From the NCBI GenBank assembly GCA_024345305.1, contig BRON01000017.1:682001-746000 (forward strand): DNA of 64,000 nt, written 5' to 3'. Source of the stretch: Mrakia gelida. Its lineage: Eukaryota > Basidiomycota > Tremellomycetes > Cystofilobasidiales > Mrakiaceae. Of the stretch, positions 10,393 to 57,900 are shown piece by piece; position 1 is the stretch's first letter; every line of letters begins with the position of its first letter. The notes beneath the pieces are model-generated. The model did not search any database and was not told the DNA's origin. It saw nothing but the letters and a program-made list of their open reading frames with translations. The position numbers were made by a program, and so were the translations under genes.

Positions 10393-13300
10393 ATGGCCTC
10401 TCACGCTCAAGTAGCAGCTGCGATCAACGCTATCACGAAGAAGGATGCCATCGTACGTCCTCCCTAAACTCGTCTCGGTGGAGGGAAGAGAGAGGAGGAG
10501 AGAGAGTGAGCTCGAACCTCGTCGATGCGATTCGCAGAGCTCACTCGTTTTTCTTCGCTTTGGTTCTGGGTTTGGCCAGCCCACGATAGATTTCACTCAG
10601 CATGAACTGGATAACGGGGATGTTGTGAGTACTCTCTCGCTGCTTCGTTGTTTGCCTTGAGGGAGATGAGCAGGGAGGGAGGGCGGGGGAGGAGGAGCGA
10701 GGGTGGAAGCTGACCCTCCCTTCTTTTGCTTTTCGTTTGTTCTTTTACAAAGGTTGATACCACTCAGAGGTGAGTCTTTTATACTACTATAGGCTCTGAG
10801 GAGGAAGGAGAAGCGTCTGGGCTTCAAGATGGTACGACTTTCGTAGTCGAGGAGGGAGGAGAGGTCGAAGCGTGTCATCGTCTCCCTCCTCCTCCTTCCT
10901 CTGCTCGTTTCATAGGGCCGAGAAGGTCGTGCGACTCCTTGGAGGGGCTCTTCTATAGCCCTTCGAGGGAAGAGTATGCTGGCTGAGGGTGAGAAGCTGG
11001 CAGGAGGGGAGGATAGAACGCTCTCTCCTTCGAAGCTGTCCGAGCTCACTCTTCTCGCTCACCGAGGAGCCGGCGGACGACCTCTCGAGAGCCAGCGAAC
11101 GTCCTTCTAGATCACTTTCCAAGCTTCCTACATCCTCCAGCACCCTCTCCCCACCTTCTATATATTCTCCGACCCACCCTCTTCTCATCCCCGAATCTTT
11201 TTCGAGCTCCATTCGCTGACCTATCGCACCTCTCCCCTTCTCTCCCCACTCCTCCTCCTCCTCCCTTTCAAGATTCGTCAAAGATGTTCGTCGCCTCCTC
11301 TTCCTCTCATCTCCCTCTCCCGCCCTCTCCCAACCCTAACCTCTTCTTTCGTTCCTTCGTTCACAGGTCCAAGCCCCAGCGATGGCCGTCCCCACCGACG
11401 AGCAGTTCTACGACCCTACCGACTCGACTCGCCCGAACATCGCGTTCCTCAAGAATCATCTGTATCGAGAAGGGAGGTTGACAGAGGAGCAGGCGTTGTT
11501 TATTCTGCAGAGGTGAGTTGGGTCGGCGCTGGGAAGGGTAGAGGGAAGAGGGGAAGAGAGATGCTGATGGGAGTTGGGACGACGCGTTTTGGTTTGGGCT
11601 CGAAGGGGAGCGGAGGTGCTGAGAAAGGAACCGAATCTGTTGGAGGTTGAGTCGCCTGTGACTGGTGAGCTTCATCTATCTACTGAACTGTGACGAGGTG
11701 CTTAGAGACAGAGAGCTGACTCGATTGGTTTGGGCGAGAGCAGTGTGCGGAGATATCCACGGTCAATACGTTCGTCCCTCCTGCCTCGCTTCCTTCCTTC
11801 CTTGAGGTCTCGAGCTCACCCTCACCTTCGTTTCTTTGGCTACAGTTTGACCTGATGAAGCTCTTTGAGATCGGAGGCAACCCTGCCGATACGCGATACC
11901 TCTGTTCGTTCGACCCTCCTCCTCGCCCTCGTTCGTCTTTCGCGTCTGACCTTTTCGCCTTCCCTCCTCGTTTCGAACAGTCCTTGGAGACTACGTCGGT
12001 TCGTCCCGCCTTTACCTCTCTACCTTGTTAGGAATACCGAAACTGATGTCCCACCGTTCCGCTCCACAGATCGAGGCTACTTCTCCATCGAGGTTCGTTG
12101 TCTCATCTCTCCCTTCGACTCGAAGCACCTCGACCAAGCTCACCTTTCCTTCACTTCACTTCCTCCCTCTACAGTGTGTTCTGTACCTCTGGTCCCTCAA
12201 AATCCACTACCCCGATACCATCTTCCTTCTTCGAGGAAACCACGAGTGCCGTCATCTCACGGACTACTTCACGTTCAAGCTCGAGTGTTCGTCCGATCCT
12301 TCCTCCCTATCTTCCCTTCAAACCTTCCCTCCCTTCCCTCCTTTCGTCCACTTGCTTCCCCGCCCGATCGCTGTCTCCGCTGACCTCTCGAATCCTCTCC
12401 CCGTGAAACAGGCAAGCACAAGTACAGCGAAGCCGTCTACGAGGCCTGCATGGAGGCGTTCTGCTGTCTTCCTCTCGCGGCGGTGATGAACAAGCAGTTC
12501 CTTTGTGTGCATGGAGGTCTTTCTCCAGAGATGGTGACGTTGGAGGATATTCGAGGGGTGAGTACTTGCTTCGAATGAAGGAGACAGAGCTGAAGTTGAC
12601 TCGACGCGTCCTTTCCTTCCTTCGCCGCTCAGATCGATCGTTTCCGAGAGTTCGTCCTTCCTCGCTGCTCGTCCTCTCCTTGTTCTCCTCGCACCGGCTC
12701 ACACTTCTCCTTTCTTTCGACCCTCACAGGCCTCCCACCTCCGGAATCTTCTGCGACATGCTCTGGTCCGATCCTCTGGAGGACTTCGACTCCGAGAAGT
12801 CCACGCGAGCTTCGGACACCGGATTCACTCACAACGCCGTTCGAGGGTGCTCTTACTTCTACTCGTACGTCTCCCGCCGCCTTTGGCTTCTGTACTAGTG
12901 GAGAGGCGACTTGTGCTGATCGCTTGGTGGGTCGTGTCGACAGGTACAAGGCCGTCTGTGACTTCCTGGATCGGAACAACCTCCTTAGTGTGATTCGAGC
13001 TCATGAGGCTCAGGATCAGGTTAGTCTCGCTTTTCCCTCTTTCCCCGTCAACCTCTCGAGCTGCTTGTCCTGACTCTCTCGTCGTTCCGTTCGTTCTCGC
13101 TCCCAGGGTGTGAGTTTCGATCTTCTCGACCTTCCCCTCCCGTTTCGAGCTTCGCCTGACTTCCGGCTTCCCTTTCCTTCTTGTTGCAGTACCGGATGTA
13201 CAAGAAGACTCGTTTCGGATTCCCAGCTGTTCTCACTATCTTCAGTGCACCCAACTACGTGAGTCAGATCTCGATTTCCTCGTCCTATCGTCGCTCGAAC

Positions 13301-14785
13301 TGAACTGACTGCCTCCCTTCGACGCGTTTCTTCTTTCAATCAGCGTGAGTTGATATACCCTTCAAGAACCCCACTTCTCGAGAGCTGAGCTGACTCTTGT
13401 TCAATTCTGCTCTTCAGTCGACGTCTACGGAAACAAGGCGTGAGTCCATCGTCACCCTTCGAAACGAAGACGCCGCGTCGAAACTGACGAACCCATCGCT
13501 TCCTTCTCCAGTGCCGTCCTCAAGCACGAAGCCAACGTCCTCAACATCCGACAGTTCAACTCCACCCCTCATCCCTACTGGCTCCCCAACTTCATGGATG
13601 TCTTTACTTGGAGTCTTCCGTTCGTCGGAGAGAAGAGTTCGTTTCGCCTCCCCTCTCGTTTCTTCCTCTCCCTCTCTCGTCCTCGTCTTATCCGAACTGA
13701 CTTCGACCTCGTTACTCTCCAGTCACCGACATGCTCATCTCGATCCTCAACACCTGCACTCGCGAAGAGCTCGAGGAGGAGGACTCGGACGATGACGCTG
13801 CTCTCGCTTCCCTCGCCGACACCCCCATCGAGGCTGTCACGCCCGTGGACGACCTCGCTGAGAAGAGGAGGCAGGTCAAGAACAAGATCCTAGCGATCGG
13901 AAGGATGTCGAGAGTGTTTTCTTTGATGAGGTACGTTCCGTTTCCCTTCTCTCTTGGTTCGAAGCGTCGAGGACGTACAGAACTGACGCGACTTTGGCTT
14001 TGGATCACAGGGAGGACGCCGAGAAGTCTTCGGAACTCAAGACTCTGGCTCTGGTGACAGACGAGAACGACGGTCATCTTCGAGATGGAGCGGTCGATGT
14101 GAAGGAGTCGATTCACGGCTTCGGAGACGCGTACGTCCCGTCTTTGTCTTCCCTCTTCCGGTCTCTCGACGAGCAACTCAAACTGACCCTTCCCTCTTCT
14201 CTCTCCTACAGTCGAAAGAGTGATATCGAGAACGAGCGACTTCCTCCTGATCTCATCGACGTGAGTTCTCTCTTCTTGGCCTCCTCCTTGTCTCTTCGAA
14301 ACTGACCCACTGCCCTCTCTTCCCTCAACAGGCCGACGACCTCTCCCCCGCCAGCCCAGCAAGCGACTCTGCTCCTGCCTCGCCAGCGTCCTCTCCTGGT
14401 GTATCGTCCCCTCCTGGAATGTCCTGGACTCGTGAGTCTCTCTCTCTCGCTCTCCCTCCGTCACGCTCGACTCGACCCTCGAACTCACTCGTCTCTTCTG
14501 CATCCGTCCCTCCTCGCAGCCGGACACGGTCGACGAGCCTCCCTCGGAACCACCGCCACCTCGCCATCCACCCGACGAAGATCCCTCGAGATGACCATGC
14601 AGAAAATCACCGAAGCTCTCGATGGATCCTCGGACGATTCAGCCCAGCTCGAGGAGATCGCGGAGAAGCTCAGCTCGCCTTCGAGGAGCAAGGTTCGTCG
14701 AGCCGCTTCTTAGTCCCCCCCTTCTGTACTCGCCACTGAATCGCTCTCCTCTCGACTCATCCAGCCTCTCAACGGACTCGCCTAA
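10393..14785 (+). CDS. CNA1: Calcineurin A, catalytic subunit of protein phosphatase 2B
   Basis: This is the Ca2+/calmodulin-dependent Ser/Thr phosphatase that activates stress transcription factors. Exons: 10393-10452, 10580-10624, 10753-10769, 10916-10925 (tentative), 11367-11512, 11606-11664, 11744-11769, 11846-11903, 11981-11998, 12070-12092, 12175-12286, 12412-12557, 12633-12649, 12730-12864, 12944-13019, 13107-13109, 13190-13258, 13344, 13418-13439, 13512-13636, 13723-13930, 14011-14130, 14212-14260, 14332-14431, 14520-14692, 14765-14785; 612 residues, the usual fungal size. Metal-site motifs are intact: GDIHGQY, GDYVDRG, RGNHE, and the later histidines in VHGGLSPE and [14 protein letters not shown]. 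The B-subunit-binding helix, calmodulin-binding segment ([20 protein letters not shown]) and the C-terminal [11 protein letters not shown] tail follow. Exons of 3 nt (GGT, the conserved Gly) and 1 nt (C, completing the Leu of SAPNYLDVY) are needed to keep the conserved protein. Many donors are GTTCGT. If the last intron is retained the protein ends at a TAG at about 14712. Confidence 0.95.
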
Positions 14786-54900: not shown

Positions 54901-57900
54901 ATCGAAGGAAGCATCCGGTCGTAGTAGGGCATTCCGTGGAGTCCTCCGTACTCTCGATGCATCGTGCTCAGACTGAGTAAGAGAGAAGAAGGCGATGGTC
55001 AGCTGGCTTGAATCGCGAGGAAGGAACAGGAAAAGGACGAGACGACTCACTTCACGACCTTCTGGAGCACCCACTTCGAACGCGAGATGAACGGTCGGAG
55101 ATCCCTCGAGTTGTGGAACCTGAGGTTGAGCTGGATGTCCTTGAAGGTCTTCTTGTACTTGACGACCTTGGCGAAGAGAGGCTTGACGGTGGAGGGTCCT
55201 GAAGGGTAGATCTGGACGACGTCGACCTCGTTGAGGTAGTAACCCTGCTTGATCTCGGCTGGAGCGATGGAGAACTCGATATCGATCCAATCGTCGACGT
55301 TCATACGACCAGCGAGCTCGCAGGTGATCCTGGCTTCGTTCCGACTGTCCTCGACGGCCTTCTGGACTTGAGCCCAGCATTCGAGCATGAGCAACGGCTC
55401 GAGGATCCGAAGGTACTGATCCGCGCTCTCGAACTGAGGAGGGATCTTCTGGAGCGAGTCGGCCGAGAAGTTGGGAGGGAGACTGTTGGTGTCCTTGGGA
55501 CCCCACTGGAGGATCGCTCGATGGAGAGACTCGAGGTCCGGCTTGAGTCGAAGGAGGGTTCGACGAGCGAGTTCCTTTGCTTCTCGACGCTTCTCCGCTG
55601 GACTTTTGATCGCGATCTCGTCCGCCATGAACTTGATTGTCCGAGTGGGAGGAGGCATGACTCGAGCTGCGACTGGTGGTTTCTGATGGACGGCTTGGGA
55701 GAAGGCAGCGAGTCCTCGAACCTCGTCCTCGTCGTCTGAGGAATCCGTCGCGGTCGAGTCCGAGTCCTGAGTGTCCGTTCGACGCTTCTTCGGCGACGGC
55801 TGAATCTCCGACTTATTCGAGATCGATAGGGAGAAGCCAGCCTTCATCATTCCCTTGGGTTGGAGGAGTTGTTTCGACTTGGGGACTGCTTTCCTCTCCG
55901 ACTTGAAGTCCGAACGAAGTTGACCGAGAGCTCCTCCTTTGCTGCTGGACGACGACTTGGTAGCTGGGACGGCTGCTCGAAGACCTGCGATGGTTCCCAT
56001 CTTGGAAGGAGCTGGAAGAGGAGCCTTTCCGGGTTTTGAAGCGAGGGTGTACTTGGGTCCGAGTTGGATCGTCTGGGATTTGGGAGCGAGGGAGGATCCG
56101 AGACGCGACGACGAGGATGAGCTCGTTGGTGGTTTCGATTTGGACGAGGATGAGGACGAAGACGCGTCCATGGCTGCGAGATCGAAGTCCGAGAACTCTG
56201 GGAACTCGTCGTCGTACTCGTCCTTCTCGGAATCCGTCGCTCGAGACGAATCCGCGACTCCAGGTCCTCTCCAGGACTTTTGGGGAACCGACGACGACGA
56301 CTTCGATCCTGAGGCGGCCGACGACTTGGATGGCTTCTGAGAAGCTGGGGAGGACGATCCGAGTACCTTCGCCCAGGCTGCCTTCTCGACTTCCTTCGAA
56401 GACGTTCCGCTTCGAGACGACGACGACGACGCGAGCGAGGACTTGGTTCGAACCGGCTGGACGATCTCGACGACCTCGTCGTCCTCCCACCAAGCGAGCA
56501 TGTCCGAGATCTCGGCGAGTTGACCATCAGTGAGCTTGCATCGGTGTCCGCTGGCTCGGTTGACGAAGTTCTGGAGTCGAGAGATGTACGACGGCTTGGG
56601 TTCCATGTTCGAGCGATGGAAGCGATCCAGGATCATCTTGATCAACTCGAACGTCTGATGGAGAGTCTCGACACTGAGGGAAGTGAGAAGGAGTCAGATG
56701 AGGGGCGAAGAGCCAAAGAAGGAAAAAGGAAGAGGAAGGCAAACTTACTCGGTGAGCCTGAGCCACGAAAGAAGATCTCCGAGGACGTTGTTGAGCGACT
56801 CGACCATTCCCTTTCCGACCGTGCTCATCTTGGTTGGGCTTCGAGGTGCTGACGACTGGCTGTTGAAGATGGAGTAGAAGCTCGTCGTCCCTCCTCCGAC
56901 CGCTGCCGTCTCGAAGGTCCTCGTCATGTCGACCATCAACCTCGCGAAGATCAACGCGTCTCGCATCCAATCCACCATCACGTCGTTCGGGTAGAAGGCG
57001 GCCCAGTGCATCGTCGAGCTGAAGACGAGGGAGATGCTCTCGGTCATGAGCCTCCAGAGCTTGGGGACGAGCCGACGGATCCCTTGATGGTTGACGAAGA
57101 CATCGTCGAGCAGGAGCCCTCTCGGGGGTCTGCAGAGGACGTCGATAACGTCGGTGAGACATCGAACCATCCACTTTGCCATCGAGCAAGCCTCGGGGAA
57201 GACCACGGCCGACTGGACGAAGGTGCTGAGGAAGGTGATGAGACCCTCCATCGCCTGGTCAGGCATGTTCTGGAGGAGGACCCGGAAGCAGTCCGCCCGA
57301 TCGTCGACGTCCGAGAAGCTCTGTTGGATGAGAGCTTGGATCGCTTCGTGGATGTCCTCGTCCGGGGAGAGGAGGAGGCTGAGGGTGGAGGAGGTGACGA
57401 GGGGAGCGTTCCAGAGCTTGAGGAGGATGTCTTGGTTGTTGACGTTTCCGAACCTCTCGATGGCTGAGGCGAACTGACTCCGAGTCTTGACGAGCGACTC
57501 GTTGAGGTGACCGATGGCTGTTCGAGCTCCTCGGCGACGAAGTGGTTCCGAGATGTTGGCGGTGCTCCAGGCTCCATCCGTCGAACTGAGGACCTCGACG
57601 TGAGCGAACCTCGCGACGGCTCGAATGAGGAGAGCGAGTCCTTCGATGTCCGACCGCTTCATCCCCATCCCGTCATAAGCACTCTTCCAGAGGCTGTCCC
57701 GAACGTCGAAGGAAGGGATAACGAGTTCGGACGACGGCTCCTTCTGATGCTTCAGGAGTGACGCGAGGGCGACGGCTCCGCTCCGAATCGTCGACGCGTC
57801 CTCGTCGAAGGCGAGGGAGAAGATCTTCTTCGCCGAAGGTCGAAGAGGTGCCCATGCTGAATCCCTGTGATCCTTGGAGGCGAAGGCGACGGAAGCGATG

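What the first reader, a model, noticed from the sequence alone, without database searches (positions are those of the whole stretch)
13259..13417. A single-nucleotide exon in calcineurin A
Between the exon ending SAPNY (to 13258) and the one starting with codon fragment TC (13418), direct splicing would shift the frame. The sequence ...CAATCAG-C-GTGAGTTG... at 13341-13350 supplies one base. Using C at 13344 as an exon gives CTC (Leu) and restores the invariant SAPNYLDVY. Both flanking introns (13259-13343 and 13345-13417) have a GTGAGT donor, a CTGAC branch point and a CAG acceptor. No alternative single-intron join restores the frame.
Basis: partly seen in the sequence, partly recalled or inferred. 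Interest (0 to 1): 0.88.

Follow-up and report, generated by a model that had tools for sequence, protein, structure and literature searches.

The report
One-base exon in yeast calcineurin
In a cold-loving yeast, a single DNA letter between two introns appears to be a complete exon that supplies one base of a nearly invariant amino acid in the phosphatase calcineurin; the same one-letter exon sits in the gene's old duplicate, and public gene models of close relatives depart from the norm at this spot.

Summary
The window is from a Mrakia yeast (Cystofilobasidiales). The gene is calcineurin A (copy A): 26 exons, 25 GT-AG introns, 613 aa. C at 13344 is best read as a one-nucleotide exon between an 85-nt and a 73-nt intron; it completes the Leu codon of SAPNYLDVY. 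Spliced alignment with 10 of 10 outside homologues chose it. The same genome holds a second calcineurin A (copy B), with introns no more alike to copy A's than unrelated pairs, yet with the same CAG-C-GT one-base exon at the same codon and phases. The duplication predates the Mrakia/Phaffia split.

'No single-intron join restores the frame' is wrong: 24 do; the best (donor 13263) gives SAPNYVIDVY, as in one Phaffia model. None restores SAPNYLDVY.

One-base exons are published in plants (APC11, VPS55), Fusarium (CYP621A) and, in one sentence, Cryptococcus. This is a new member of a known kind, unusually old and in a phosphatase active-site motif. Exons of 2, 3 and 4 nt in the same gene family suggest the tail of an intron-dense genome. 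RNA evidence is missing.

The parts
10393..14785 (+). Calcineurin A (PP2B catalytic subunit) gene, copy A, ATG to stop: 26 exons, 25 GT-AG introns, 613 aa
   Evidence: Gene model; re-derived by spliced alignment with a Cryptococcus homologue; solved calcineurin A chains match
13190..13258 (+). Exon 17 (69 nt), [23 protein letters not shown], ends in phase 0
13259..13343 (+). Intron 17 (85 nt): donor GTGAGT, CTGAC at 13305-13309, acceptor CAG
13344..13344 (+). Exon 18: one nucleotide, C, first base of the Leu codon CTC
13345..13417 (+). Intron 18 (73 nt): donor GTGAGT, CTGAC at 13390-13394, acceptor CAG
13418..13439 (+). Exon 19 (22 nt): starts with TC, the last two bases of the Leu codon, then DVYGNK
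13107..13109 (+). Exon 16: three-nucleotide exon GGT, encodes the Gly of EAQDxGYRMY
   Evidence: Gly at this place in 120 of 120 homologues; in copy B this Gly ends a 79-nt exon
11273..11285 (+). Exon 4: 13-nt exon ATTCGTCAAAGAT (part of RFVKDV)
13263..13417 (+). Rival single intron (donor GTCAGATC, 4 nt downstream), in frame, would give SAPNYVIDVY
   Evidence: donor score -1.2 against 9.5 for 13259

Best explanation
C at 13344 is a one-nucleotide exon of calcineurin A copy A. Two ordinary U2-type introns, 13259-13343 and 13345-13417, are removed one after the other by intron definition; the acceptor of the first and the donor of the second are one base apart and so cannot be used at the same moment. 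The retained C joins TC of the next exon as CTC (Leu) and keeps SAPNYLDVY. If the C is lost, the frame shifts and a stop follows in a later exon. Shown here from sequence: the signals, the frame, the Leu, and the same arrangement in the paralogue. Inferred: conservation in Phaffia and M. frigida (from protein models only), the sequential order of splicing, constitutive use, and presence of the base in mRNA.
For: Leu follows the SAPNY motif in 164 of 168 homologues collected; the four exceptions are the two M. frigida and two Phaffia models. Spliced alignment, with an intron model trained without the introns flanking the tiny exons, picked the one-base exon with 10 of 10 outside queries in both copies; the best rival was 56.6 (A) and 59.8 (B) half-bits worse. 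It also won with M. frigida and Phaffia queries that carry Val or Val-Ile there. Shuffles: 0 of 4000 in each copy. Paralogue B: one-base exon C at C17:529031, introns of 86 and 91 nt, same codon and phases, although introns at shared positions are no more alike than unrelated pairs by a crude measure (mean 0.72 in both). Tree: an A clade and a B clade, each with Mrakia and Phaffia, support 100/100 and 100/99. Phaffia B's annotated peptide before this site is the one-base-shifted reading of the Mrakia B sequence (57 of 57 bases consistent; 0 of 2000 shuffled peptides). Phaffia A's Val-Ile equals a 4-nt donor shift and M. frigida's Val equals one G borrowed from either intron end, as computed on this genome's DNA.
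Against: No RNA evidence. The intron 17 acceptor and donor are weak for this gene (2.6, lowest of 25; 7.3, second lowest). M. frigida is annotated Val in both copies, which could be a real G exon or a different join; its DNA could not be read. A single intron 13263-13417 keeps the frame with one inserted residue. The outside queries all carry Leu there, which favours the C reading.
Confidence: 0.93

Rival explanations
1. One intron, 13263-13417, using the donor 4 nt downstream (GTGA kept in the exon). The protein then reads SAPNYVIDVY, with one extra residue.
For: In frame and open. It is the best-scoring alternative with 10 of 10 queries in both copies and matches the Phaffia copy A annotation P0002.
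Against: Its donor scores -1.2 (A) and 1.8 (B), below every donor of the 44 introns of the two genes (lowest 4.5). It inserts a residue in a motif that has none in the 166 collected homologues other than P0002 and the unreadable P0121. Even with the Phaffia A protein as query it loses, 2893.8 against 2921.9. It leaves the CAG-C-GT signals in both paralogues unexplained.
Confidence: 0.03
2. Assembly or sequencing error: one base is missing from or added to a flanking exon, and a single 159-nt intron 13259-13417 is removed.
For: A one-base indel would also create the phase gap; reads were not available.
Against: The same gap and signals occur in copy B of the same genome, and a matching gap is inferred in Phaffia copy B. 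A 159-nt intron would be longer than 42 of the 44 introns of the two genes. Shuffles give 0 of 4000.
Confidence: 0.02
3. A non-canonical junction borrows one G (TACG|TGAG...CAG or GTGAG...TTCA|GTC), giving SAPNYVDVY as in the M. frigida models.
For: On this genome's DNA both joins give the Val annotated in both M. frigida copies.
Against: The TG donor scores -19.4 (A) and -13.9 (B), the CA acceptor -11.7 and -9.0. It is also what aligning a transcript with an unplaceable one-base exon could produce (inference).
Confidence: 0.01
4. A stwintron or zero-base ratchet site: both introns are removed and no base is kept.
For: Two adjoining introns that must be removed in sequence are stwintron-like (PMC12403724, passages).
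Against: Removing all 159 nt breaks the frame, with a stop after 446 aa in copy A and 361 aa in copy B. Both introns are complete and one base separates AG and GT.
Confidence: 0.01

Closest known systems
Single-nucleotide exon of Arabidopsis APC11 (Guo and Liu 2015, PMC4674806; abstract and discussion read) and of plant APC11 and VPS55 (PMC8831610; passages read)
   Same: One base between two ordinary introns, needed for the frame, missed by annotation, conserved across species; sequential intron removal proposed
   Different: Plant genes with RT-PCR and RNA-seq support; here calcineurin A in a basidiomycete yeast, kept in two paralogues, without RNA
Single-nucleotide exon of Fusarium CYP621A (Nelson and Syed 2026, PMC12940212; abstract, results and discussion read)
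   Same: Fungal gene; phase gap in a conserved motif (PKG) filled by one base between AG and GT
   Different: Ascomycete P450, middle base of a Gly codon, 18 SRA reads shown; here first base of a Leu codon in a phosphatase motif, in two paralogues that predate a genus split
Cryptococcus neoformans exons 'as small as 1 bp' (PMC3990503; intron section and passages read)
   Same: Same class (Tremellomycetes), intron-rich genome; seen in an RNA-seq based annotation
   Different: One sentence; no gene is named in the passages seen, and CNA1 does not occur in the main text
Stwintrons (PMC12403724; passages read)
   Same: Two U2 introns removed in sequence
   Different: Nested introns, no base retained; here two complete neighbouring introns with one base kept

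Membership tests
Single-nucleotide exon | Complete GT-AG introns with donor, branch point and acceptor on both sides of one base | tested here: met
   By sequence signals:
Single-nucleotide exon | The base is needed to restore the frame and a conserved residue | tested here: met
   Leu in 164 of 168 homologues; skipping gives an early stop; no single-intron join gives SAPNYLDVY
Single-nucleotide exon | Arrangement conserved in related genes | tested here: met
   Paralogue B by DNA; Phaffia and M. frigida only by inference from protein models
Single-nucleotide exon | The base is present in mature mRNA | not testable with these tools
   No RNA reads available
Stwintron | Internal intron interrupts a splice element of an outer intron and all sequence is removed | tested here: not met
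   Full removal breaks the frame; both introns are complete
Zero-length ratchet (recursive splice) site | AG directly followed by GT, no base kept | tested here: not met
   AG-C-GT in both copies
Calcineurin A (PP2B catalytic subunit) | Sequence match to solved calcineurin A chains over the catalytic domain | tested here: met
   6tz8_A, query residues 31-402, 719.4 bits

The most novel reading that the evidence does not exclude
The one-base exon is an old frame gate on calcineurin in Mrakiaceae. Inclusion gives the active phosphatase; skipping or the +4 donor gives a truncated or active-site-altered product. Selection for that control, for example with temperature, has kept it in both paralogues.
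Probability: 0.06. Interest if true: 0.8.

Novelty: new member of a known kind. Interest (0 to 1): 0.52.

Why it matters
It puts a one-base exon in a conserved, drug-targeted enzyme (drug targeting recalled) and shows by DNA that two long-separated paralogues share it, so the spliceosome of these yeasts probably handles it reliably. Public calcineurin A models of Mrakia frigida and Phaffia are probably wrong at this motif: Val for Leu, an inserted residue, or a misread stretch of at least 19 residues. [quoted passage not shown]

Tried and rejected
Stwintron and ratchet readings were rejected on frame and anatomy. Borrowed-G junctions were rejected on site scores. One scan of viral contigs with the M. 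frigida protein found no relative. I reached no Mrakia frigida, Phaffia or other fungal DNA besides the window's own genome (the genome-contig collection, bacteria and archaea, was not scanned), so orthologous introns could not be read.

Ten paper searches were made. In their listings I saw no report of a one-base exon in calcineurin; I opened only PMC12940212, PMC4674806, PMC5103461, PMC8831610, PMC3990503, PMC8022950 and PMC12403724. Pfam scans of ten long ORFs of the window gave a family for 2 of 10.

Survey of PPP relatives: 10 loci, none with a one-base exon; 1 of 10 (L019) gave credible exons of 4 nt or less. A zero-length exon in L017 came with a distant query (114 of 309 identical) and is not believed. 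The models of L018, L019, L020 and L022 break off or lose residues near the 3' end, L023 lacks its N-terminal part and L024 skips five residues before SAPNY, so tiny exons there could have been missed.

Limits of the aligner: the intron model was trained on 21 introns or 38 introns, leaving out introns 15-18 of A and 13-14 of B; the other introns rest on my own model of A and on the aligner's model of B. Short pieces at the 3' end of some models (9 nt, 6 nt in one row) are where the query ends, not microexons.

Full report
What the window holds. The best protein matches are Mrakia frigida (98% identity) and Phaffia rhodozyma (75%) calcineurin A; both are Mrakiaceae, Cystofilobasidiales. The window is therefore from a Mrakia close to, but not identical with, the annotated M. 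frigida; the species was not determined. The gene runs from 10393 to 14785 with 26 exons and 25 GT-AG introns and encodes 613 aa. A spliced aligner that I wrote, given a Cryptococcus amylolentus protein, found the same 25 introns.

The one-base exon. Exon 17 ends with TAC in phase 0 at 13258; exon 19 begins with TC at 13418. The 159 nt between contain a complete acceptor, one C, and a complete donor, with a CTGAC whose A lies 35 and 24 nt before the two acceptors. The C gives CTC, Leu. Two searches listed the best 120 of 7983 and of 7971 hits, 168 different proteins in all. At this place 164 have Leu, 2 Val, 1 Val-Ile, and 1 could not be matched. The four exceptions are the M. frigida and Phaffia models.

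Chance and alternatives. Shuffling the intron interior 4000 times never gave as good a one-base split, in copy A or in copy B; a bare AG-C-GT in the allowed positions arose in 131 and 400 of the 4000. With ten outside queries the one-base exon was chosen 10 of 10 times in each copy, 56.6 and 59.8 half-bits ahead of the best rival; with the smaller training set and one query the lead in copy A was 45.2. Against it: the intron 17 acceptor is the weakest of the gene and its donor the second weakest, and the outside queries all carry Leu. With the M. frigida and Phaffia models as queries it still won, 4 of 4.

The wrong sub-claim. Between 13190 and 13439 there are 24 in-frame open single-intron joins with GT or GC donors; 11 keep SAPNY and DVYGNK, all with inserted residues. 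The best is donor 13263, giving SAPNYVIDVY. Its donor scores -1.2 against 9.5 for 13259, and in copy B 1.8 against 12.0; the lowest donor among the 44 introns of both genes scores 4.5.

The paralogue. A second calcineurin A lies on the same contig, aligned span C17:526352-530511. Its exon ends GACTAC, then GTGAGTTCGA...CGTTCGCAG, C, GTTCGTTCGC...TTTCCTCAG, then TCGACGTG. The aligner placed a one-base exon C at 529031. The two proteins share 421 of 597 aligned residues; 17 introns agree in position and phase, among them both that flank the one-base exon, 8 are only in A and 2 only in B. By a crude global-alignment measure, introns at shared positions are no more alike than unrelated pairs (mean 0.72 in both), so recent copying does not explain the match. 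In a tree of 18 proteins (these six and 12 of the other collected homologues), copy A of this genome, M. frigida and Phaffia form one clade (100/100) and copy B another (100/99). The duplication therefore predates the Mrakia/Phaffia split and, by the simplest reading, so does the exon. The tree does not settle whether A and B are each other's closest kin.

Relatives read through their protein models. Only proteins, not DNA, were available, so this is inference. Phaffia B reads KNEDNRIPLGDDAVLGTRLLDVY where Mrakia B has KTKTTGFPSVMTLFSAPDY(L)DVY. One DNA sequence can encode both, one base apart, over all 57 bases tested; none of 2000 shuffled peptides passed, best 22 bases. This fits a predictor that joined ...TAC directly to TCGAC and misread the stretch before it. 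Phaffia A's Val-Ile is what the +4 donor join gives, and M. frigida's Val in both copies is what one G borrowed from either end of the intron gives, both computed on this genome's DNA. Val could also be a real G exon in M. frigida.

Mechanism. Acceptor and donor one base apart cannot be used at once, so the introns would be removed in turn by intron definition, as proposed for Arabidopsis APC11 (PMC4674806, discussion). Either order is possible: removing intron 17 first lowers the second donor's score slightly (10.6 to 8.9), and removing intron 18 first leaves the acceptor's unchanged. Skipping the base would shift the frame, with a stop after 446 aa (A) or 361 aa (B), ahead of further exon junctions. 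Functional use of skipping is not shown. From recall, this residue lies in the loop beside the active site that in PP1 carries Cys273.

Why such exons exist here. Phaffia and Mrakia are among the fungi with most introns per gene, 7.4-7.5 and 8.2 (PMC5103461, passages). Internal exon lengths in the two genes fit an exponential (KS p 0.85 each, with the mean taken from the same data), which predicts 1.4 exons of 3 nt or less among 42; three were found, two of them homologous. The 2-nt exon is followed by a poorly scoring 240-nt intron (-12.8), so it is less certain. The one-base exon thus looks like the extreme of a more general feature of this genome; a genome-wide count was not made.

Prior work. 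One-base exons are known in plants, in Fusarium and, in one sentence, in Cryptococcus neoformans. The Fusarium abstract presents its case as the first for a fungal gene, though the 2014 Cryptococcus paper already mentions 1-bp exons. In the ten searches named under Tried and rejected I saw no report for calcineurin. What is new is the gene, the age and the misannotation across two genera, not the kind.

Noticed in passing
window 13107-13109: Three-nucleotide exon GGT in the same gene, encoding a Gly that 120 of 120 homologues carry; the intron on its 5' side is absent from paralogue B.
   Followed up: yes
L014 (C17:526352-530511), one-base exon at C17:529031: A second calcineurin A gene in the same genome, with its own one-base exon at the same codon and SAPDY instead of SAPNY; SAPDY also in M. 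frigida P0028 and, by inference, in Phaffia P0121.
   Followed up: yes
P0001, P0028, P0002, P0121 (M. frigida and Phaffia models): Public calcineurin A models depart at this motif in three different ways and are probably wrong there.
   Followed up: partly
L019: C16:341523-341524 and C16:342135-342138: Probable 2-nt (CC) and 4-nt (GATG) exons in a PP2A-like phosphatase gene.
   Followed up: partly
window 55050-57668, minus strand: SEN1-type helicase pieces (Pfam SEN1_N and SEN1_barrel) in two ORFs on the opposite strand.
   Followed up: no
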